Shown here piece by piece: positions 1-9,591 of a stretch of DNA of 9,830 nucleotides. Numbering within the stretch: position 1 is the stretch's first letter; each line of letters opens with the position of its first letter. The notes below the pieces were generated by a model that did no database searches, was not told the DNA's origin, and saw nothing but the letters and a program-made list of their open reading frames with translations. The translations under genes were made by a program, and so were the position numbers. The stretch covers positions 1 through 9,830 of the forward strand of contig CAIYYW010000113.1 in NCBI GenBank assembly GCA_903930515.1. The letters are read 5' to 3'. The DNA is from an uncultured delta proteobacterium. GTDB taxonomy: Bacteria; RBG-13-61-14; DRUE01.

Positions 1-603
1 AGCCTGCTTTACCTGAAAAACGGCGTTTTCATCTCCCATCAGAAAGAGCCGGAATCAGATCAATTCGTCCAGTTTGAAGAAGCCTATTCCCGTCTGGATT
101 TCGGGGATGTCACGGAGTTGGAACAGAAGCTTCGGAGGGAATCCACTTCCGCGAGCTTTGTGGATTTGATTGATATGATGGCCAACCTGGAGGAGTACCG
201 TCCCAAATCCCGGGAGTCCAGGAAGGAGGTCGGCTTTTCCAAACAAATCCAGATTGAAATCATCCAGCGACTGGCCCAGGTCCTAAGCGCGGTGTTTCTG
301 GCGCTCTGGGGGATCGGGCTGGGGATCAAGCCTCCCCGGACGAGCCGGACCATCTCCTACATCCTGGGGGTGCTGGCCGGGTTCGGATACTATTACCTGA
401 ATGTGTTCTTCAAGGCCCTTGCGCTGAAGAAGGTTTTGCCGTTGGAGGTCGCGCTCTGGAGCCCGGCGCTCCTGGTCCTGGTAACCGGGGCCTGGCTGAT
501 GCGGCAGCGGATGAAGGGATACGAGCCGCTCAACTTCCTGTACCAGGCCGACGAGTATCTCCGGCAATGGCGGATACGGAGGCGGAATCTTGAAAATCCT
601 TGA
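1..603 (+). CDS. lptF: LptF-family LPS export permease, C-terminal part (5' end outside window)
   Basis: The frame is open from the first base of the window and ends at TGA 601-603, so 200 codons of a larger gene are visible. The first ~80 residues look like the end of the periplasmic beta-jellyroll domain and a polar linker. Three hydrophobic helices follow, around VLSAVFLALWGIGLGI, YILGVLAGFGYYYLNVFF and LWSPALLVLVTGAWL, which match TM4-TM6 of the LptF/LptG family. After the last helix comes a short basic cytoplasmic tail. In the family, LptF and LptG form the inner-membrane channel driven by the LptB ATPase that extracts LPS and feeds it to the LptC/LptA bridge. The LptF assignment (rather than LptG) rests on its position just upstream of an LptG-like gene, the usual lptF-lptG order, and on the overlap of the two frames. 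The missing 5' part would hold TM1-TM3 and most of the jellyroll. Confidence 0.85.
   Translation, partial: SLLYLKNGVFISHQKEPESDQFVQFEEAYSRLDFGDVTELEQKLRRESTSASFVDLIDMMANLEEYRPKSRESRKEVGFSKQIQIEIIQRLAQVLSAVFLALWGIGLGIKPPRTSRTISYILGVLAGFGYYYLNVFFKALALKKVLPLEVALWSPALLVLVTGAWLMRQRMKGYEPLNFLYQADEYLRQWRIRRRNLENP
578..582 (+). promoter_or_regulatory. Ribosome binding site for lptG (TTG start)
   Basis: GGAGG sits 7 nt before the TTG at 590, inside the last codons of lptF. It decides the non-ATG start of lptG; there is no in-frame ATG nearby that would give the conserved LptG N-terminus. Confidence 0.75.
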
Positions 604-1684
604 CCGCTATCTAGCCAAGATTTTCCTGGTGATCCTGCTCTCATCCAACCTGCTCACCTCGCTGCTGTTCCTGCTGATCAGCATCCTGGACCGGCTCAGC
701 TATTTTTTGGTCAAGCGGGAGTTGAGCCTGGGCCAGATCTTCATCTACTTCAGCTATCAACTGCCCCAGATTTCTTATTACTGCGCCCCGCTCTCCGTCC
801 TGTTCGGACTGCTCCTGACCATGGGCGTCCTCGGCCAGCGGCAGGAGCTCACGATTATGCGCGGAACCGGTTTAAGCTGGAGCCAGATTATGCGCTGGCC
901 TTTGATCCTGGCCATCGTCTATGCCTGGCTGATGTACCTGATGGGCGGATGGATGATCCCGCTGGCCAACCAAAAAACCCGCGCCTTCGAGCAGGAGGAG
1001 ATCAAGAAAAAAAACCTCAAGTCTCCGATCGCGGACCTGTGGATTTTCAATTCCAAGGACCCCAATAATCAATACGCGATCTATATCCCGATCTTTTTGC
1101 CGGGCAAGGAAGTGGTGAGGCGGATTTCGATATATCAGATCAACGCCGATTTTTTCCCGGTCAAGGAAATCCAGGCGAAAAGGGCCAAATACCGGGAACA
1201 CAATCAGTGGGTATTGAAAAAGGTCAAGGTGTTCACCTACCAGCCGTTCGGCCGGCCGATTTTGGAACTGGTGGACAAAATGGAACTCAAGTTGCCGACC
1301 ATACCCAAGGATTTTTATACTTTCCAAAAAAAACCGGATGAACTGACCATCCCGGAACTATCCAGCTACCTGAAAAAGCTGGTCAATTTCGGATTGGACC
1401 CCCGGGAATACCAGGTGGAACTGATGAGCAGGTATTCCCTGCCCTTTGCCTGTTTGATCCTGTTCGGGCTCGGACTGGGCATTTCCATCCGGCTAAAAAG
1501 GCCGCGCGGGATTTACCTCAACCTCGCCTACGCCCTGGTCTCCAGCTTCGGCTACTTCGCGATTATGGCGCAATGCCTGTCGCTGGGCAAGAGCGGAAAA
1601 TTGCCGGCCACCCTCTCAACCTGGATCGCCAACCTGGTGTTCGGGATCATCACTGTTTATCTTCTGATCCGGCGCGAACAGTAA
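590..1684 (+). CDS. lptG: LptG-family LPS export permease
   Basis: A complete protein of 364 residues, the usual size for LptG. The start is TTG at 590, inside the end of lptF (14-nt overlap). It is chosen because GGAGG lies at 578-582 with a 7-nt spacer and because the N-terminus MKILDRYLAK is typical of LptG. Helices are seen at about residues 11-33, 62-82 and 102-124. A polar periplasmic jellyroll domain follows at ~125-275, then helices at ~283-300, 308-332 and 341-361. The segment QELTIMRGTGLSW between TM2 and TM3 is the conserved cytoplasmic coupling-helix region that in the family contacts LptB. The protein pairs with LptF to form the lateral gate through which LPS leaves the inner membrane. 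The overlap implies translational coupling with lptF and a 1:1 ratio. The stop TAA at 1682-1684 is only 13 nt from the stop of the convergent MBL gene, with no convincing terminator between them. Confidence 0.9.
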   Translation: MKILDRYLAKIFLVILLSSNLLTSLLFLLISILDRLSYFLVKRELSLGQIFIYFSYQLPQISYYCAPLSVLFGLLLTMGVLGQRQELTIMRGTGLSWSQIMRWPLILAIVYAWLMYLMGGWMIPLANQKTRAFEQEEIKKKNLKSPIADLWIFNSKDPNNQYAIYIPIFLPGKEVVRRISIYQINADFFPVKEIQAKRAKYREHNQWVLKKVKVFTYQPFGRPILELVDKMELKLPTIPKDFYTFQKKPDELTIPELSSYLKKLVNFGLDPREYQVELMSRYSLPFACLILFGLGLGISIRLKRPRGIYLNLAYALVSSFGYFAIMAQCLSLGKSGKLPATLSTWIANLVFGIITVYLLIRREQ

Positions 1685-1697
1685 TAGCCGCGAAGGC

Positions 1698-2540
1698 TTA
1701 TTTCAGCAGACGATACTGTTTTTCGTTTCCGGAAGATATCGCAGCCACTTTCCCCTCCCGCTCCAGCTTGCTCAGATGACCGAGCACGGTGATCTCCGCG
1801 GCCCGGTAAAGACCGGGATGGATCAGCCCGGCATAAATTTTCCCCGCCAGCTCGCCGCTGGTTTCCGGACCGTCGCCCAGGATTTTCAAAATCTGATACT
1901 CGCGCAGCTCGCGGTGCGCGATCAAATCCTTCAGATGCCGGGCCGGGTCCCGGATCACCGGCCCGTGGCCCGGAAGCATCAGCCGGACTTCCAGTTCCCG
2001 CACTTTTTTTAAAGACGCCAGATACTCGCTCATATCCCCGTCCGGGGGGCCTACAAAACTGGTTCCCTCGCCCACGATCAAATCTCCGGTGAAAAGGATC
2101 GCTTCTTTTTCCAGGTAAAGAGAAATATGCCCGGGGCTGTGGCCCGGGGTCGCGATCACCAAAAGCTCTCCCAACTCGCTCTCCAACCGGGGTTCCCCTT
2201 CAATCCACTCGTCCACCATCGCTTCCAGATTCCTCCGCGCCAGGACCGGCCGCTCCAACTTATGCGCCATCACTTTCGGCTGAAAATTTTCCTTCAGATC
2301 CGGGATCGCGCCGGAATGATCAATATGGCCGTGAGTCAATACCAGGGTTTTCAGTTTTCGGGAGGAATGGGCGATGACCCGGCTGATCTTTTCCACCGTA
2401 TGGTCCTCGCGGTAGCCGGCATCAATCAGAACCAGGTTTTGGTTTCCGATCAGATAGAAGAACGGGGTTTGCCAGCCGGGCAACGGGGGTGATTCGCTGG
2501 ACAGCCGCGCCAGGCCGGGAATCACCTCTTCAATCTTCAT
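1698..2540 (-). CDS. Metallo-beta-lactamase fold hydrolase, LACTB2-like, with C-terminal winged helix
   Basis: 280 residues with no signal peptide, so probably cytoplasmic. The MBL core spans about residues 1-200 and carries a full binuclear metal site: THGHIDH (H70, H72, D74, H75), PGHSPGH (H134, with H138), TGD (D153) and PGHG (H192). Residues ~205-280 look like a small helical/winged-helix tail (EITVLGHLSKLEREGKV), the arrangement seen in LACTB2-like hydrolases. Members of this group act on diverse substrates, including thioesters, lactones and single-stranded RNA; the substrate here cannot be named. The ATG overlaps the stop of the upstream signal-peptide MBL gene as ATGA (2540-2537). No Shine-Dalgarno precedes it, so translation should be coupled. 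It is last in a three-gene minus-strand operon and converges on lptG. Confidence 0.85.
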   Translation of the reverse strand: MKIEEVIPGLARLSSESPPLPGWQTPFFYLIGNQNLVLIDAGYREDHTVEKISRVIAHSSRKLKTLVLTHGHIDHSGAIPDLKENFQPKVMAHKLERPVLARRNLEAMVDEWIEGEPRLESELGELLVIATPGHSPGHISLYLEKEAILFTGDLIVGEGTSFVGPPDGDMSEYLASLKKVRELEVRLMLPGHGPVIRDPARHLKDLIAHRELREYQILKILGDGPETSGELAGKIYAGLIHPGLYRAAEITVLGHLSKLEREGKVAAISSGNEKQYRLLK

Positions 2541-3274
2541 TTATAATCCAGCACGATGATCTCCGGCTTTTCCGGCAGGGTCTTGATCAAATACTCGTTG
2601 CCCTTGATCCTCCGGACCTTGCTTTTTCCGGAAAGGAAATCATCCACCGCCCTGAGCGGAATGGTGATGGCCGCGGTTTTATAATGCATCGGGAAAATCA
2701 GTTTCGGCTTCAACTGCTCAACCACCCGGGTCGCTTGCTCCGCGTCAATGGTATAGGTCCCGCCCACCGGGATCAGCAGCACATCCGCCCGGCCGATCTT
2801 TTGCAACTGCTCTTCGCTCAGGATCGCCCCCAAGTCGCCCAAATGGATGATCCTCATCCCCGGCATCTCCAGCGCCATTATCGCGTTCTTCCCCCGCTCC
2901 TTTCCGTTTTTATCGTCGTGATCGGACGGGACCGAGTAAACCTTTACATCCTTGATGGTCTCGCTCACCCGGTTGAAATCCTGGGTGGCCGGGTCCAGGC
3001 CGTGGATGACTTTGGCATTGCCCTTGGCCATCTTCGCGTAGTTATGGTCATAATGCTCGTGGGTAATCAAAACCAGGTCCGGGGATACCTCCGGCATCGG
3101 GTAGCCCACCTGGGGACCGAACGGGTCCAGGAGAATTTTCACCCCGTCCGGAGAAGTGATCAAAAAGCAGGACTGGCCGAACCATTTTATTTTCACTTCG
3201 GCCCGAGCCGAAAATCCGGAGAGAAAGCCGGTTAAAACCATCGCGCCCGCGATTACGCCGATTATTTTTTTCAT
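2537..3274 (-). CDS. Exported UlaG-like metallo-beta-lactamase fold protein
   Basis: 245 residues. The N-terminus MKKIIGVIAGAMVLTGFLSG followed by FSARA-EV is a Sec signal peptide with an AxA-type site, cleavage predicted after A25. No lipobox is present, so a periplasmic location is likely. The mature part starts with VKIKWFGQSCFLI and continues with THEHYDH (H72, H74, D76, H77), PSDHD (H119), HLGD (D147) and FPMHYKT (H197). These are the metal ligands of the UlaG / YtkL-like branch of the MBL superfamily. Characterised UlaG is a cytoplasmic L-ascorbate-6-phosphate lactonase, but most relatives, and this exported one in particular, have unknown substrates. The start ATG at 3274 has GGAGGA (3283-3278) just upstream. 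The gene lies 17 nt after the FHA gene and overlaps the next MBL gene by 4 nt. Confidence 0.85.
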   Translation of the reverse strand: MKKIIGVIAGAMVLTGFLSGFSARAEVKIKWFGQSCFLITSPDGVKILLDPFGPQVGYPMPEVSPDLVLITHEHYDHNYAKMAKGNAKVIHGLDPATQDFNRVSETIKDVKVYSVPSDHDDKNGKERGKNAIMALEMPGMRIIHLGDLGAILSEEQLQKIGRADVLLIPVGGTYTIDAEQATRVVEQLKPKLIFPMHYKTAAITIPLRAVDDFLSGKSKVRRIKGNEYLIKTLPEKPEIIVLDYK

Positions 3275-3278
3275 CGCT

Positions 3279-3290
3279 CCTCCCGGGAGG
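3279..3290. promoter_or_regulatory. 12-bp perfect palindrome covering the RBS of the exported MBL gene
   Basis: CCTCCCGGGAGG is a perfect inverted repeat filling most of the 17-nt gap between the FHA stop (3292-3294) and the exported MBL start (3274). On the minus strand its right half is the Shine-Dalgarno GGGAGG. In RNA it could fold as a 4-bp stem with a CCGG loop and mask the ribosome site. The palindrome is seen directly; the regulatory role is inference, and a short GC-rich palindrome can arise by chance. Confidence 0.4.
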
Positions 3291-3291
3291 G

Positions 3292-4077
3292 TTATTGGGA
3301 CAGGCGGAAGTATAAGGTCATTTTGGTATTGCCGATCTCGATCTGGTCCTCGTTCCGGATTTTCACCGCGCTGACTAAAATACCGTTGACCCGGGTGCCG
3401 TTGGTGGACGCCAGATCCTTGATCGTGATTTTGTCCTTGGAATGAATCTCGATCTGGCAGTGCCGCTGGCTGGCCGCTTCATCGTCCAGGGGCAAATCCG
3501 CATCGTGGGAACGGCCGATCACCGTGCTCCGACGGTCCAGCCGGAACCGTTGCCCCTTGTTGGGGCCTTCCGCGATCTCCAGCACCGCCTGAAAATCTTC
3601 CGGCAACTCCGGGTTGTGAACCCCCTCCCCCATCACAAAGGTGCCCTCGTCCCGCGGGCCGGCCGCGGGGACGGGTACTTCAACCGTCCCGGCAGGCTCC
3701 TCGTAGATCGCGTAGGGGTCGCTCACCACGCTAATCAAAAGTTTGCTCTCCCCGACCTTGATCTCGTCCATGTTCTGGAGCGGGCACCCGCTCACTTTTT
3801 CGCCGTTGACAAAAGTGCCGTTGGTGGAATTATTGTCGTAAAGCGTGATGTTCTCCTTGTTTACCTCAATCGTGCAGTGCTTGGAACTGATCGCCTGGTC
3901 GCTCAAGACTATCTCGCAATTCTTCCTGCCAATGCTCGTGCTCATTTTACGGATCTCGAACTTCACGCCCGCCTCCGGGCCTTCCAGGACCTCTAAAGAA
4001 ATCTTCAGGTTGGACGGGATCTCCCCTTCCGGCGACTTGTCCTTCCCCGAAGGAATCTTGGTATCTTCTTCCGACAT
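3292..4077 (-). CDS. Tandem FHA-domain protein (two forkhead-associated domains)
   Basis: 261 residues from the ATG at 4077 (a TTG directly before it would add one codon). FHA domain 1 covers about residues 25-117 with G50-R51, S64-x-x-H67 and the STNGTFVNG loop at 84-92. FHA domain 2 covers about 164-260 with G188-R189, S203-x-x-H206 and STNGTRVNG at 224-232. Both keep the residues that bind phosphothreonine in the family (GR, SxxH, NG), so both are expected to be functional. A charged N-terminal tail (1-24) and an acidic, Pro-rich linker (~118-163) flank them. There is no signal peptide or membrane segment, so the protein is predicted cytoplasmic. It probably acts as an adaptor reading Ser/Thr phosphorylation, but no kinase or phosphatase is in the window. 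It heads an operon with two MBL-fold genes. No clear Shine-Dalgarno precedes the start; see the promoter at 4114-4086. Confidence 0.9.
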   Translation of the reverse strand: MSEEDTKIPSGKDKSPEGEIPSNLKISLEVLEGPEAGVKFEIRKMSTSIGRKNCEIVLSDQAISSKHCTIEVNKENITLYDNNSTNGTFVNGEKVSGCPLQNMDEIKVGESKLLISVVSDPYAIYEEPAGTVEVPVPAAGPRDEGTFVMGEGVHNPELPEDFQAVLEIAEGPNKGQRFRLDRRSTVIGRSHDADLPLDDEAASQRHCQIEIHSKDKITIKDLASTNGTRVNGILVSAVKIRNEDQIEIGNTKMTLYFRLSQ

Positions 4078-4085
4078 CAATTATT

Positions 4086-4114
4086 ATTTTAGGCGAATTG
4101 ATCCCTGCCGTCAA
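4086..4114 (-). promoter_or_regulatory. Sigma70-type promoter for the FHA-MBL-MBL operon
   Basis: Read on the minus strand: -35 TTGACG at 4114-4109, a spacer of exactly 17 bp, and -10 TAAAAT at 4091-4086. Each box differs from consensus at one position. The expected transcription start, 6-7 nt past the -10 box, is about 4080-4079, while the start codon is ATG 4077-4075. The mRNA would therefore have almost no leader, which fits the absence of a Shine-Dalgarno. The boxes and spacing are read directly; use in the cell is inferred. Confidence 0.65.
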
Positions 4115-4244
4115 ATTCAGCGAAAGCCGATGGCCCGAATGAATCTGGTGTTGCGAGACGATCGTATTAACTCCCTGATCGCCTTTGAGCGGAAATAGCG
4201 CAATCTTATCCTTAATTCCGGTGGCAAAATTGGACGGGTTCAGT

Positions 4245-4250
4245 TAAAAT
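4245..4250 (+). promoter_or_regulatory. Possible -10 box for the AOR gene
   Basis: TAAAAT lies 20 nt before the ATG at 4270. At 17-bp spacing the -35 would be TGGCAA (4222-4227), only 3 of 6 consensus bases, so the promoter is weak or needs an activator. It lies in the 192-base divergent region (4078-4269), which otherwise holds only the FHA operon promoter and nothing else I can recognise. Confidence 0.3.
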
Positions 4251-4269
4251 CAATTCCGGGAAGAATTTG

Positions 4270-6033
4270 ATGGGAAAAATTTTGATGGTTGACCTTGCGG
4301 GCCAAAAGTCGCGGGTAATGGAAATCCCCCCGGGTTGGGCTCAAGAATATATGGGCGGGACCGGACTGGGGGCGCGATTGCTTTACGCTCCCGGGAACCA
4401 GAATGATCTGGTGATCGCGCCGGGATTGTTTTTAGGTTTGCCTATTTTTACCGCCAGCAAGACCGGGATCGCCGCTATTTCTCCGCTCACGGAAAGATGG
4501 GGCGAGTCCAATATGGGCGGGAGATTCGGGATTGAGATTAAGCGGGCGGGCTGGGATTTGGTCTGGATCAAAGGCCAATCCCCGGATTGGGTGGCGCTCA
4601 AAATCACTGACGAGCGGGTTGAGTTTGAACCGGCGGAAGATTTGCTCGGCCTGAGCACTTCGCAGACCGAGGATGCCCTTAAAAAGAAAATTGGAAGCCC
4701 TTATCAATTCGCGGTGATCGGCCCGGCGGCTGAGAAGGATGTCCTGTTCGCGTGCATCCGGAGCGGGAACCGCACGGGCGGTCGGTGCGGGATGGGCACG
4801 GACTGGGCGAGAAGGAAGATCAAGGCGATCGCGGTTTTTGGCTCGCGCGTGATTGCGCCGGTTGATCCGGAGGCGATCAAGTCCCTGCAAAAGGATTTGA
4901 TCAAGAAAATCCGGGCCAAATCCGAGGCGCAAAATAAATACGGCACGGCCTGCGGCGTGGTTTACCGCGAGGGGATCGGCGACCTTCCGATCAGAAATTT
5001 CGCCGGGGGAAAATTTTCAGCCGCGGATAAAATTTCCGGCCAGGCGATGGTTGAGAGGTTTCAGGGCAAACGGCGGGCTTGTCCGCATTGCCCGATTGCC
5101 TGCGCGAAAGAGATCACGGTTCCGGAAATAAACTACCAAGGCCCGATGCCCGAGTATGAGACGGTCGGGTCGCTAGGCTCGCTCCTGATGATTGAAGACC
5201 CGGTGGCGGTGATTGCCGGGAACCGCGCTTGCAACGAATACGGCATTGACACGATCACCGCGGGAGCGGTCGCGGCGTTCGGGCTGGAATGTTTTGAGAA
5301 GGGGGTGCTCGGGGAAAAAGATTTCCACCCGATCAAGCCGGAATGGGGCTCGGGAAAATATTTGTTGGACCTCATTGACGCGATTGCCAAGCGCGAGGGG
5401 ATCGGGGAACTCCTGGGTCTGGGCACCAGGAAAGCCGGCCTCAAGATCGGCGGGAACGCCCTGGACTTTGCCATGCAGTCGCACGGCCTGGAGCTCGCGA
5501 TGCACGATCCGCGCGCCTATGTCAGCCTGGCGGTATCTTATTCCATCGGCACCCGGGGCGGCTCGCATAACGAGGCGATGAGTTATTTTGTGGAGCAGGG
5601 ATTTGATATGGCCGACTTCGGATTCCCGGGCGGGCTGGACCCGCATAAAATTCCGGGCAAGGGAAGGATGGCGGCGATTATGCAGAATATTTCCACCGTT
5701 TATGACAACCTGGGGGTTTGCAAATTTATGTATTCCTCCGATGTCGGGCCGACCACGCTTTGCCAATGGCTCAAGTTCGGCCTGGGCTGGGAAAAAAGTT
5801 ATCCCGAGTTGGTCAGATGCGGGGAACGGTCTTACACGGTCAAGCATTTGTTTAATATTGACCGGCTCAAGATCAAGCCTGACGCCGACCTTCCCAAGCG
5901 TGTGCTCTGCGAGACCAGGGGAGAGGGCGGTTCCGCGAACATCCTTCCCGACCTGGCAACCATGCTCAAGGAATACTATGATTATAGGGGATGGTCGCCG
6001 GAGGGGTATCCGCCCCTGACCACTCGCCCTTGA
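4270..6033 (+). CDS. Aldehyde:ferredoxin oxidoreductase (AOR) family protein, tungsto/molybdopterin enzyme
   Basis: 587 residues from ATG 4270, close to the ~600 usual for the family. TTG 4267 directly upstream is an alternative that adds one codon. The N-terminal domain (1-~200) opens with GKILMVDL and carries the family's SPLTERWGESNMGG and ELKRAG-like EIKRAGWD segments. The [4Fe-4S] ligands are complete: C271-x2-C274-x3-C278 (ACPHCPIAC) and C484 in DNLGVC. The motifs PEYETVGSLGS (295-304), HDPRAY (412-417) and GTRGGSH (428-433) also match the family. The C-terminus YYDYRGWSPEGYP is typical. AORs oxidise aldehydes to carboxylic acids (or the reverse) using a bis-tungstopterin cofactor and ferredoxin, in the cytoplasm. 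The usual RGGxGAVMGSKNLKAI stretch is here GRCGMGTDWARRKIKAI (171-187), which suggests a divergent subgroup with an unknown substrate. No partner subunit or cofactor gene lies beside it; a lipoprotein gene follows after 44 nt. Confidence 0.88.
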   Translation: MGKILMVDLAGQKSRVMEIPPGWAQEYMGGTGLGARLLYAPGNQNDLVIAPGLFLGLPIFTASKTGIAAISPLTERWGESNMGGRFGIEIKRAGWDLVWIKGQSPDWVALKITDERVEFEPAEDLLGLSTSQTEDALKKKIGSPYQFAVIGPAAEKDVLFACIRSGNRTGGRCGMGTDWARRKIKAIAVFGSRVIAPVDPEAIKSLQKDLIKKIRAKSEAQNKYGTACGVVYREGIGDLPIRNFAGGKFSAADKISGQAMVERFQGKRRACPHCPIACAKEITVPEINYQGPMPEYETVGSLGSLLMIEDPVAVIAGNRACNEYGIDTITAGAVAAFGLECFEKGVLGEKDFHPIKPEWGSGKYLLDLIDAIAKREGIGELLGLGTRKAGLKIGGNALDFAMQSHGLELAMHDPRAYVSLAVSYSIGTRGGSHNEAMSYFVEQGFDMADFGFPGGLDPHKIPGKGRMAAIMQNISTVYDNLGVCKFMYSSDVGPTTLCQWLKFGLGWEKSYPELVRCGERSYTVKHLFNIDRLKIKPDADLPKRVLCETRGEGGSANILPDLATMLKEYYDYRGWSPEGYPPLTTRP

Positions 6034-6066
6034 AACACAGATGGAGCTATAACAAACCAAACCGAT

Positions 6067-6072
6067 GGGAGG
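6067..6072 (+). promoter_or_regulatory. Ribosome binding site deciding the start of the 395-residue RCC1 lipoprotein
   Basis: GGGAGG followed by TTAAA and then ATG 6078. It supports the lipoprotein start over in-frame codons further upstream that would run into the end of the AOR gene. The leader GGAGGTTAAAATG resembles that of the paralogous RCC1 gene (AAGGAGGTTGAAAAATG). Confidence 0.75.
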
Positions 6073-6077
6073 TTAAA

Positions 6078-7265
6078 ATGTATAAAAGCCTGAAAGCGAT
6101 TTTGACAGTGGCGGCTATGGGGTTCGCGGTCTGGGCCTGCGGGCCGGCCCCGGAGTTTGCGCCGGACTCAATTCCGGTTGAGCAGGAAAGCCCGACAAAG
6201 TCTTTTGTAAGTTTACCCACGACTTGGAACCAGGTAAGCGCTGGTTTCCCTTATACCTGCGCGATCGCCTCGGACAAATCGCTATGGTGCTGGGGAGGGA
6301 ATGCCGACGGAGAACTCGGGACTGGAAATACGACCGAGCAAACCACCCCTTACCAAACCCCCACGGGAAACAGTTGGAAAACGGTTTCCACCGGAACCAA
6401 ATTCACCTGCGCAATAAAAACCGATGGCACACTCTGGTGTTGGGGCAATAACGCCAACGGGCAATTGGGCTTGGGGGTGATCGGCGGGGATCATTGGGGC
6501 CCTTCCAAGGTGGGCAAGGCAACCAACTGGACCTCGGTTGCAACCGGCGGATACCATACCTGCGGCAAGCGTTCCGACGACACGCTCTGGTGCTGGGGCA
6601 GAGGCATTGAGGGCCAACTCGGAAATGGACTGATCACCGCCGGCGCGCCCAAAAAAGTCAATCGCGCCACGGACTGGGCATCGGTTTCCACAGGCAATTC
6701 TCATACCTGCGCGAAAAAGAAAAACGGAAACATTTATTGCTGGGGCAACAATGGCTCGGGCCAGGTGGGGGATGGGACCACGGACGGAAAACCTCATCCC
6801 AAAAGAATCGGCTCCCGAGAAGATTGGAAACTGGTTTTTGCCGGGGGCGCCCGCACCTGCGGGATCAAGAAGAATACCCAACTCTGGTGCTGGGGCAGTA
6901 ATTTTTTCGGAGGGGTCGGGGATGGAACCACGGCTGATAAAAAAGTTCCGACCAGAATCGGGACCGACCAGAACTGGAGCCTGGTTCGGCAAGATGAGGA
7001 CTTCACCTGCGGAGTCCAGTTTGGCACCCGGATGTGCTGGGGCGCGAACAATGTCAATCAACTCGGAGACGGAACCGACGTGGAAAGGCATGATCCCACC
7101 CAGGCGGATGCGTCTTCGGACTGGAAGACCATTGAAGTGGGAATGGTGCACGGGTGCGGGATCAAGACTGACTTGAGCCTATGGTGTTGGGGTTATAATA
7201 GCGCCGGCCAGGTAGGAGACGGGACCAAAGTCGCCAAACCCAGCCCGGTCCAGATCGCTCCCTGA
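6078..7265 (+). CDS. RCC1-repeat lipoprotein, one seven-bladed propeller
   Basis: 395 residues. The start ATG 6078 is chosen because GGGAGG (6067-6072) lies 5 nt upstream and it gives a clean signal peptide; earlier in-frame codons have neither. The signal peptide is MYKSLKAILTVAAMGFAVWA followed by C21, a lipobox-like VWAC with Gly at +2, so lipidation and outer-membrane sorting are likely. A Pro/Glu-rich linker (22-47) leads to seven RCC1 repeats of ~50 residues starting near 48, 98, 149, 198, 248, 298 and 347. Each has the form nW-x-x-V-x-x-G...TC-x9-CWG-x-N-x-x-GQLG-x-G-x...P. Cysteine pairs are 61/71, 111/121, 162/172, 211/221, 261/271, 311/320 (x8 spacing) and 360/370. Seven repeats make one closed propeller. 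The RCC1 fold is a binding scaffold in general; no partner can be named here. The gene may be co-transcribed with the AOR gene 44 nt upstream and ends at a shared terminator. Confidence 0.9.
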   Translation: MYKSLKAILTVAAMGFAVWACGPAPEFAPDSIPVEQESPTKSFVSLPTTWNQVSAGFPYTCAIASDKSLWCWGGNADGELGTGNTTEQTTPYQTPTGNSWKTVSTGTKFTCAIKTDGTLWCWGNNANGQLGLGVIGGDHWGPSKVGKATNWTSVATGGYHTCGKRSDDTLWCWGRGIEGQLGNGLITAGAPKKVNRATDWASVSTGNSHTCAKKKNGNIYCWGNNGSGQVGDGTTDGKPHPKRIGSREDWKLVFAGGARTCGIKKNTQLWCWGSNFFGGVGDGTTADKKVPTRIGTDQNWSLVRQDEDFTCGVQFGTRMCWGANNVNQLGDGTDVERHDPTQADASSDWKTIEVGMVHGCGIKTDLSLWCWGYNSAGQVGDGTKVAKPSPVQIAP

Positions 7266-7284
7266 AATAATCTCTTGACAAGGA

Positions 7285-7314
7285 AAAGGGGCAGGCGATT
7301 TCGCCTGCCCCTTT
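7285..7314. terminator. Bidirectional intrinsic terminator between the convergent RCC1 genes
   Basis: A perfect hairpin with the stem AAAGGGGCAGGCG (7285-7297), an ATTT loop (7298-7301) and the matching arm CGCCTGCCCCTTT (7302-7314). On the plus strand the stem's own TTT end runs into AAATT. On the minus strand the arm ends in CCCCTTTTCC. It lies 19 nt after the stop of the plus-strand RCC1 gene and 18 nt from the stop of the minus-strand one, so it can serve both. The U tracts are short, but the GC-rich stem is very strong. Confidence 0.85.
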
Positions 7315-7332
7315 AAATTCGCTATCGGAAGC

Positions 7333-9445
7333 TCACGGTTTCAAGACCTGGGAAGGGGTCACCCGCATCAGACTATTGTCTCCGAGTTGGCCGAAATTAT
7401 TCCTTCCCCAGCAGAAGAGCGTTCCCGCGGTCTTGATCCCGCAGGTGAAATAGCCATTGCCGCCATCAACCGAGGCCCATTCCGCGCCGCCGATCACGAC
7501 CGGGGTGGTCCGGTCAAGATAGCTCCCGTCCCCGACCTGGCCATAATTGTTATTATCCCCCCAGCAGGAAATGGTATTATCAGTATGTCTTCCGCAGGTA
7601 TGATACGCGCCGGCTGTAACCGATGCCCAGTTGGTCAGCGCGCCCACCTGAGTGGGGTCCCCGACATTCCCGCCGCCGAATCCCAATTGACCATTATTGT
7701 TCCTTCCCCAGCACCAGAGCGTGCCATTGGACTGGGTCGCGCAAGTATGTTCCTGCCCGCCGCTGACCGTGGTCCAGAGCGTGCTGGTCGTGCTTTCCTG
7801 TTGCGGCACATCGGCATCTCCGCCGCCCCCCGTGCCCAGTTGGCCCCGGTTATCCCGCCCCCAGCACCAGAGCGTGCCCGTGGTCTTGATTCCGCAACTA
7901 TGCCACCAGCCGGTTCCCACATAATTCCAGACGCTGGCGCTATCCTCCTGATCCGGAAGGTCATAATCCGTGCCAGCATCAGCATTGCCCAGTTGACCAT
8001 AATCATTATTCCCCCAGCACCAGATGGTGTTATCGCTCCGCCGGGCGCAGGTCTGATCGCCTCCCGCGGAAATCTGGTTCCAGGTATTCAAGGGGTCAAC
8101 CGGGGAAGGGTTGCTATTGTCGGTATTGCTCCCGATTCCGAGTTGGCCGAAATTGTTTCTGCCCCAGCAGAAAATCGCGCCGCTAGATTTCCGAGCGCAG
8201 GAATGGTTCCTGCCCAGATCAAGTTTGTCCCAGGTGGTGTCGGATCGCGCCAACATCGGATAATTCACCCACGCGCCCGGAATGGCCAGTTGACCGTATT
8301 GTCCGTCTCCCCAGCAATAAAAACTATTATCGCTTTTCTTGGCGCAGGCGTGGTTTTCTCCCAGGGCCACCTGGCTCCAATTAACATCGGTTCCAACGGC
8401 GTTGGGCGCGCCCCGGTCAGTATATGGCGTTGCCACTCCGAGTTGACCGTAGGCATTATAGCCCCAGCAGTAGATCGTGCCATCGCTCTTGAGCGCGCAG
8501 GCGAAACTCTGGCCGGTGTCAACCGAAGCCCAGTTGGCCGCGGTATCAATCCGCCTGGGGGTAAAATAGTTGATCGTGGTGTTGTTTCCAAGCTGGCCCG
8601 AACTGTTGTCTCCCCAGCACCAGAGCGAGCCGTCGGTCCTGGTCGCGCAGGTGAATAAATCTCCGGCGCCCACGGCCTTCCATCCCTTGGACGCGATCTT
8701 CTTGGGCAGATTCTGGTCCATCGCGTGCCCAATTCCGAGTTGGCCCTCGTTATTCCTTCCCCAGCACCAGACCGTGCCATCGCTCTTGGTCGCGCAGGCG
8801 TGGTCCCAGCCGGCTGCGACCGTGGAGCATTTGGAGAATTTAGTTACCTTGGTCGGGATGTAGCGGTTGCCATTGGTTCCCTCCCCGAGCTGGCCAAAAG
8901 CATTGTTGCCCCAGCAATAAAGCGCGCCAACGGAATTCCTGGCGCAGGTGAAATCTCCCCCGGCTGAAACCAAAACCCAGTTTTTGGCAACACCGATTTT
9001 CCTGGGAATATAACCGGGGATTATGGTCGCATCTCCGAGCTGGCCTTCATCATTCAGCCCCCAGCACCAGAGCGTGCCGTCGTTCTTCCTGGCGCAGGTA
9101 TGGTTCCCGCCGGTTGAAACCAGCGACCAGCCCGAGGAAATCAAGGTCGGCGCCGCTTTGGAAACCCCGGTCCCGTCTCCCATCTGCCCTTCCCAGTTCC
9201 TGCCCCAGCAATAAAGGCTGTTGTCGGTCTTGGTCGCGCAGGTGTGAAATTTTCCGGCCGAGATGCTTTTCCAGTTGGTATCGGTTCCGATCTTGACCGG
9301 AGTATCCCGCTCAATCACGCTGTTGTCTCCAAGCTGACCGTCATCATTGATGCCCCAGCAATAAAGCGTCCCGTCCTTGGCAATGGCGCAGGAATGGTTC
9401 TCGCCCACCGAAAGCCGATTCCAGGGACCGGCGCCGGCAAAGCTG
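7333..9445 (-). repeat. Coding tandem repeat of ~150 nt, 14 copies
   Basis: The RCC1 repeat is visible at DNA level. A unit of about 147-156 nt recurs, with the plus-strand core CCCCAGCACCAGAGCGTGCC or close variants at roughly 7707, 7860, 9060 and elsewhere. Conservation is highest over the CWG codons and low between them, so the copies are old and under protein-level selection rather than a recent expansion. Confidence 0.8.
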
Positions 9446-9591
9446 ACCGCATCATCATAGCCCGCGGGACTCTGAAAATCCGCGGTGATCGCCCCTTCCG
9501 CGATCCCTTCTTCCGATGAGCCGCATCCATAGAATCCTGCCAGTCCTGCAATCAGGATCAGAAAGAATACGCTTTTCAAACGGTTTTTCAT
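7333..9591 (-). CDS. RCC1-repeat lipoprotein, fourteen repeats (two seven-bladed propellers)
   Basis: 752 residues. The start ATG 9591 has a perfect AAGGAGG 7 nt upstream. The N-terminus MKNRLKSVFFLILIAGLAGF then YGC gives a lipoprotein signal peptide with Cys at 23; the lipobox (FYGC) is unusual at -3 and -2. A short acidic linker (24-54) follows. Then come fourteen ~50-residue RCC1 repeats with the consensus nW-x-x-v-x-x-G...hTCA...dGtlyCWG-x-N-x-x-GQLG. Every one has a C-x9-C pair: 68/78, 118/128, 166/176, 216/226, 266/276, 315/325, 365/375, 416/426, 465/475, 515/525, 566/576, 617/627, 666/676 and 717/727. Fourteen repeats fit two consecutive propellers (~55-402 and ~403-752). Blade 5 has an extra C255 where the other blades have the core Trp. 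Blades 11-12 have Gly-rich loops. It is probably displayed on the envelope, with binding partner unknown. It is a paralogue of the convergent 395-residue protein. It could be a single transcription unit or follow the gene at the right edge. Confidence 0.9.
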   Translation of the reverse strand: MKNRLKSVFFLILIAGLAGFYGCGSSEEGIAEGAITADFQSPAGYDDAVSFAGAGPWNRLSVGENHSCAIAKDGTLYCWGINDDGQLGDNSVIERDTPVKIGTDTNWKSISAGKFHTCATKTDNSLYCWGRNWEGQMGDGTGVSKAAPTLISSGWSLVSTGGNHTCARKNDGTLWCWGLNDEGQLGDATIIPGYIPRKIGVAKNWVLVSAGGDFTCARNSVGALYCWGNNAFGQLGEGTNGNRYIPTKVTKFSKCSTVAAGWDHACATKSDGTVWCWGRNNEGQLGIGHAMDQNLPKKIASKGWKAVGAGDLFTCATRTDGSLWCWGDNSSGQLGNNTTINYFTPRRIDTAANWASVDTGQSFACALKSDGTIYCWGYNAYGQLGVATPYTDRGAPNAVGTDVNWSQVALGENHACAKKSDNSFYCWGDGQYGQLAIPGAWVNYPMLARSDTTWDKLDLGRNHSCARKSSGAIFCWGRNNFGQLGIGSNTDNSNPSPVDPLNTWNQISAGGDQTCARRSDNTIWCWGNNDYGQLGNADAGTDYDLPDQEDSASVWNYVGTGWWHSCGIKTTGTLWCWGRDNRGQLGTGGGGDADVPQQESTTSTLWTTVSGGQEHTCATQSNGTLWCWGRNNNGQLGFGGGNVGDPTQVGALTNWASVTAGAYHTCGRHTDNTISCWGDNNNYGQVGDGSYLDRTTPVVIGGAEWASVDGGNGYFTCGIKTAGTLFCWGRNNFGQLGDNSLMRVTPSQVLKP

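What the first reader, a model, noticed from the sequence alone, without database searches (positions are those of the whole stretch)
6078..9591. Convergent pair of RCC1 lipoproteins with exactly 7 and 14 blades
Counting CWG-centred repeats gives seven in one protein and fourteen in the other, which is one and two closed seven-bladed propellers. Both have lipoprotein signal peptides, similar ribosome-site leaders and a shared terminator. This looks like a duplicated system in which an ancestral single-propeller gene, or its double form, was copied in inverted orientation. Bacterial RCC1 lipoproteins have no well-defined general function, so this is the best candidate for an uncharacterised envelope system here. 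The counts are read directly; duplication and surface role are inference.
Basis: partly seen in the sequence, partly recalled or inferred. Interest (0 to 1): 0.7.

Follow-up and report, generated by a model that had tools for sequence, protein, structure and literature searches.

The report
Seven- and fourteen-blade surface propeller proteins
Two neighbouring genes of an uncultured sediment-type bacterium encode lipid-anchored proteins built from one and two closed seven-bladed propellers; they are two ordinary members of a very large, fast-changing family of exported propeller proteins in its genus, and not a special gene pair.

Summary
The counts are right. The short gene (6078-7265 +, 395 aa) has 7 RCC1 repeats and the long one (7333-9591 -, 752 aa) has 14. 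Both have lipoprotein signals and share a strong hairpin between their stop codons. AlphaFold2 with relatives predicts 56 strands (14 x 4) in the long protein, and its two halves separately match seven-bladed RCC1 folds. The 7/14 count is a rule: 35 of 37 complete RCC1 genes in this genome and its one held congener have exactly 7 or 14; the other two (6 and 13) have the missing blade in another frame. Each blade carries a C-x9-CWG cysteine pair, as in plant CRINKLY4 receptors. The pair is not conserved: in the congener the same locus (between an aldehyde ferredoxin oxidoreductase and a GH2 gene) keeps only a decayed last blade of the long gene, lacks the short one, and carries three lipoprotein genes, two with Kelch propellers. 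The two genomes hold about 24 and 45 RCC1 propellers plus a Kelch family; order-mate G002 none. Best reading: disulfide-clamped surface binding proteins from a rapidly turning-over repertoire. Ligands unknown.

The parts
6078..7265 (+). Short RCC1 lipoprotein, 395 aa, 7 repeats (one propeller), 15 Cys = lipidation Cys + 7 pairs
6078..6137 (+). Lipoprotein signal peptide of the short protein (lipobox VWA|C)
   Evidence: read from the sequence; pattern test
7333..9591 (-). Long RCC1 lipoprotein, 752 aa, 14 repeats (two propellers), 30 Cys = lipidation Cys + 14 pairs + 1
8400..9430 (-). Propeller 1 of the long protein (blades 1-7; approximate limits)
   Evidence: AF2 model residues 28-378 match UVR8, Z 56.8, 348 aligned, rmsd 1.5 (model residue 1 = precursor residue 23)
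7333..8399 (-). Propeller 2 of the long protein (blades 8-14; approximate limits)
   Evidence: AF2 model residues 399-730 match HERC2 RLD2, Z 47.7, 329 aligned, rmsd 1.4
9526..9591 (-). Lipoprotein signal peptide of the long protein (lipobox FYG|C)
   Evidence: read from the sequence
7285..7314 (.). Perfect 13-bp hairpin between the two stop codons, probable bidirectional terminator
4267..6033 (+). Aldehyde ferredoxin oxidoreductase family gene 44 bp upstream of the short gene; conserved left border of the variable locus
   Evidence: Pfam; 78% identical ortholog in G001 C564
9693..9830 (-). C-terminus of a GH2 (beta-mannosidase/glucosaminidase-like) gene, right border of the variable locus, 101 bp upstream of the long gene
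   Evidence: 79% nt identity over 53 bp and same reading frame as G001 C564; Pfam of the homologue

Best explanation
The two genes encode outer-membrane-directed lipoproteins whose exported parts are one (short) and two (long) closed seven-bladed RCC1-type propellers. Each blade is probably clamped by a disulfide across its middle hairpin (C-x9-CWG). They are two of a genus-specific family with tens of RCC1 propellers and a parallel Kelch-propeller family, which gains, loses and exchanges members at a fixed chromosomal site. The most likely job is binding: each propeller is a rigid scaffold whose variable loops hold a ligand at the cell surface or on vesicles, and the tandem form gives two sites or higher avidity. 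Shown: repeat counts, signal sequences, predicted fold, family size, locus turnover. Inferred: export to the outer membrane, disulfides, binding, ligand diversity.
For: Repeat counts. AF2 model with 40 relatives, pLDDT 90.6, pTM 0.65, 56 strands; halves match UVR8 (Z 56.8) and HERC2 RLD2 (Z 47.7) separately. 35 of 37 complete genes have 7 or 14 blades; in other bacteria 7 (34 genes), 14 (29), 21 (1), against 13 (5) and 6 (2). 39 of 44 five-prime-complete genes have a lipobox. Cysteine pair at the main spacing in 395 of 455 genus repeats and in 731 repeats of relatives; the same motif is read as a disulfide in CRINKLY4 (PMC4617170). Same locus, different propellers in G001 C564. Kelch family with shared N-terminal module. 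The longest variable stretch is the C-D loop. A Myxococcus RCC1 protein is vesicle-specific (PMC4158809). BLIP-II, a secreted RCC1-like protein, is a binder (PMC9218822) and matches the model (Z 28).
Against: No ligand, expression or localisation data. Variable positions lie in the AB, CD and DA loops, so no single binding face is proven. No recurrent partner gene was found. The lipoprotein sorting rule is taken from other bacteria. pTM 0.65 leaves the relative placement of the two propellers open.
Confidence: 0.6

Rival explanations
1. The pair is a local duplication in inverted orientation of one ancestral gene, working as a two-gene envelope system.
For: Convergent neighbours of the same family with a shared terminator; the short protein and the long protein's first propeller fall in one five-member clade in the larger tree (0.83).
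Against: That clade includes three congener propellers, two of them closer to the short protein. Identity of either protein to its best matches in the two genomes is only 40-44%, all with other loci. The congener lacks the short gene and keeps only a decayed blade of the long one. Leaders are generic. Blade-by-blade scores show no clear register.
Confidence: 0.07
2. The propellers are mainly structural or envelope-maintenance parts, for example partners of the neighbouring enzymes (oxidoreductase, GH2), and not a recognition repertoire.
For: The short gene is 44 bp behind the oxidoreductase gene and the long gene 101 bp behind the GH2 gene, possibly co-transcribed; no promoter-like site lies in either gap.
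Against: The enzymes are conserved in the congener while the propeller genes are not, and no recurrent partner gene was seen around about 50 RCC1-bearing contigs.
Confidence: 0.2
3. Injected or secreted effectors acting on eukaryotic Ran GTPase, as for Legionella RCC1-repeat effectors.
For: Same repeat family; Legionella RCC1-repeat effectors exist (PMC7157520, title and abstract).
Against: Lipoprotein signals in nearly all members point to membrane anchoring; paired cysteines suit an oxidising compartment; family size and turnover do not fit one conserved target.
Confidence: 0.04

Closest known systems
RCC1-like domain of plant UVR8 and human HERC2 (PF00415, PF25390)
   Same: Seven-bladed fold; halves of the long model align over about 330-350 residues at rmsd 1.2-1.7 with Z 47-57
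   Different: Cytosolic or nuclear proteins; templates lack the paired cysteines (PMC4617170 for RCC1-type templates); UVR8's GWRHT motif is absent here
CRINKLY4/ACR4 receptor ectodomain (PDB 7a0j, 7a0k)
   Same: Extracellular RCC1-like propeller with C(X~10)CWG in each blade (PMC4617170); Z 26-27
   Different: Plant receptor kinase, single propeller of shorter repeats (about 39 aa)
BLIP-II, secreted beta-lactamase inhibitor
   Same: Secreted bacterial RCC1-like binder; Z 28, about 243 residues aligned
   Different: Shorter protein, not a lipoprotein (own knowledge); beta-lactamase binding not tested here
Myxobacterial RCC1 proteins (MXAN_0889; 15 COG5184 genes in Haliangium ochraceum)
   Same: Multicopy RCC1-repeat genes; MXAN_0889 found only in outer membrane vesicles (PMC4158809; PMC3035250)
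   Different: Fewer copies reported; function equally unknown
WRAP double propeller of Nostoc punctiforme (14 blades)
   Same: 14 blades fold as two seven-bladed propellers (PMC9218822)
   Different: WD40 lineage, near-identical recently amplified blades, STAND ATPase context

Membership tests
RCC1 repeat family (PF00415 / PF13540) | Repeats of about 50 aa matching the family models above the curated cut-off | tested here: met
   163.8 and 408 bits against a 21.7-bit cut-off
RCC1 repeat family (PF00415 / PF13540) | Closed seven-bladed propeller, four strands per blade | tested here: met
   Long protein: AF2 model with 56 strands, each half matching a seven-bladed RCC1 chain. Short protein: by count and homology only
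Bacterial lipoprotein | N-terminal signal with lipobox cysteine | tested here: met
   Pattern test; lipidation itself not shown
CRINKLY4-type disulfide-clamped RCC1 propeller | Cysteine pair C...CWG in every blade | tested here: met
   21 of 21 blades have the pair, 20 at a spacing of 10 and one at 9; bond formation not shown
UVR8 photoreceptor | GWRHT tryptophan motif | tested here: not met
   0 occurrences
Ran guanine nucleotide exchange factor | Exchange activity on Ran | not testable with these tools
   needs biochemistry
BLIP-II | Tight binding of class A beta-lactamase | not testable with these tools
   needs biochemistry

The most novel reading that the evidence does not exclude
The genus carries a diversified surface-recognition repertoire in which RCC1 and Kelch propeller lipoproteins are swapped at fixed chromosomal sites and sometimes exchanged between species, analogous in logic to variable receptor or antigen families, with ligands such as prey, kin, phage or polymers.
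Probability: 0.25. Interest if true: 0.65.

Novelty: new member of a known kind. Interest (0 to 1): 0.42.

Why it matters
Exported bacterial RCC1 propellers have hardly any known function outside BLIP-II. A genus with roughly 24 and 45 such propellers in two genomes, strict 7/14 blade quantisation, and one locus where RCC1 propellers in one species correspond to Kelch propellers in the other gives a natural system for asking what these scaffolds bind and how they diversify.

Tried and rejected
AF2 of the long protein without an alignment failed (pLDDT 42.7); a 41-row alignment solved it. Blade-by-blade comparison of the two proteins shows no clear register, so whole propellers were used for trees. 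The first tree placed the long protein's second propeller with G1_C24, the larger tree with L070: its position is unstable. NCBIfam gave nothing for either protein. Searching order and class returned the same three genomes, of which only the two congeners have RCC1_2 matches. Neighbour clustering found no recurrent partner except other propeller lipoproteins. UVR8-like light sensing was set aside for lack of the GWRHT motif.

Full report
Observation. The finding's counts and coordinates hold. The short gene (6078-7265 +) encodes 395 aa with seven CWG-centred repeats at 49-51 aa spacing, the long gene (7333-9591 -) 752 aa with fourteen at 48-51 aa; shuffled sequences never exceed 3 and 4. Pfam models for RCC1 repeats and RCC1-like domains match both strongly. 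Both start with a lipoprotein signal. A 13-bp perfect hairpin lies between the convergent stops.

Fold. The mature long protein was modelled with 40 relatives (alignment A1): pLDDT 90.6, pTM 0.65, and 56 strands, i.e. 14 blades of four. Re-alignment to solved chains shows two separate full matches: model residues 28-378 to the seven-bladed UVR8 (Z 56.8, 348 residues, rmsd 1.5) and 399-730 to HERC2 RLD2 (Z 47.7, 329 residues, rmsd 1.4). The short protein was not modelled; its repeats match the same solved chains by sequence.

The 7/14 rule. The window is contig C113 of genome G000. With a repeat HMM, complete RCC1 genes of G000 and its one held congener G001 have 7 (20 genes) or 14 (15 genes) repeats; the two others, with 6 and 13, have the missing blade in another frame of the same locus. 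In relatives from many phyla the counts are 7 (34), 14 (29), 21 (1), 13 (5) and 6 (2); several of the 13s have a partial blade left at the end. So exactly 7 and 14 is the family rule and suggests that the closed propeller is the unit kept by selection. One gene cut by a contig end, C70, has 8.

Cysteines. Every blade of both proteins has a C-x9-CWG cysteine pair (one blade has x8); the short protein has 15 cysteines (one lipidation cysteine plus seven pairs), the long one 30 (one plus fourteen pairs plus one). The similar C(X~10)CWG motif in plant CRINKLY4 receptors is read as one stabilising disulfide per blade outside the cell (PMC4617170). I infer the same here.

Relationship of the two genes. 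In the propeller tree of both genomes the short protein groups with two congener propellers, G1_C241_1473 and the first propeller of G1_C418 (support 0.955; 0.926 with relatives). The first propeller of the long protein joins them only in a wider clade (0.83), and its second propeller lies far away at an unstable place. First and second halves of most double proteins of the genus form separate clades, so the 7+7 form is old and was probably not made anew in this gene. A recent inverted duplication within the pair is not supported.

The locus in the congener. The oxidoreductase gene has a 78% identical ortholog on G001 C564. Behind it, in the orientation of the long gene, are 42 residues 74% identical to the last blade of the long protein, with a stop codon in place of the first cysteine of the blade, followed by a terminator-like inverted repeat; the short gene is absent. 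Next come three lipoprotein genes, of which the second and third carry Kelch propellers, and then a GH2 gene whose C-terminus is also at the right edge of the window. The simplest reading is that the long gene was present in the common ancestor and decayed in G001. Whether the short gene was gained in G000 or lost in G001 cannot be decided with two genomes.

Family size. Order-mate G002 has none. A Kelch lipoprotein family with a shared cysteine-rich N-terminal module is also expanded, and one 2094-aa protein combines Kelch, Ig-like and two RCC1 propellers. One locus of G001 (C482) has eight RCC1 genes in a row. G001 appears to be the lake-sediment MAG CAIUDS01 (uncultured delta proteobacterium AlinenSedimentsD2_bin-1424), since its contig C712 and locus L031 have the same length and carry the same gene at the same place.

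Interpretation. Lipoprotein anchoring, paired cysteines, a rigid scaffold with variable loops, tandem forms, large copy number and turnover at a fixed site fit surface or vesicle binding proteins better than a conserved two-gene machine. A Myxococcus xanthus RCC1 protein was found only in outer membrane vesicles (PMC4158809), and BLIP-II shows that a secreted RCC1-like propeller can be a tight protein binder (PMC9218822). Ligands and the benefit of two propellers remain unknown.

Verdict. Observation confirmed; closed-propeller reading supported; pair and duplication reading not supported. The proteins are new members of a known kind. The more interesting fact is the genus-wide propeller repertoire and the exchange of propeller type at one locus.

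Noticed in passing
G000 C56 (L118) 5413-6916 and G001 C672 (L178) 5858-7361: One RCC1 lipoprotein gene is 99.5% identical in DNA (dS 0.008) between the two species although its flanks are 65-80% identical and the oxidoreductase ortholog has dS 0.85. Recent transfer or gene conversion, or an assembly join near the contig end.
   Followed up: partly
G001 C482 (L162) 5174-16607: Eight RCC1 lipoprotein genes in a row on one strand, seven with one propeller and one with two.
   Followed up: partly
G000 C179 (L115) 287-6571: A 2094-aa protein with a Kelch propeller, Ig-like domains and two RCC1 propellers; signal-like N-terminus but no lipobox found.
   Followed up: partly
G001 contigs such as C338, C217, C69, C272: A large Kelch-propeller lipoprotein family with a cysteine-rich N-terminal module shared with one class of RCC1 lipoproteins.
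   Followed up: partly
L080 5338-8967: A gammaproteobacterial RCC1 lipoprotein with 21 repeats, i.e. three propellers by count.
   Followed up: no
G000 C289 (L117) 998-2214 and G001 C544 (L167) 871-3177: RCC1 genes with a frameshift before the last blade; decay or assembly error.
   Followed up: no
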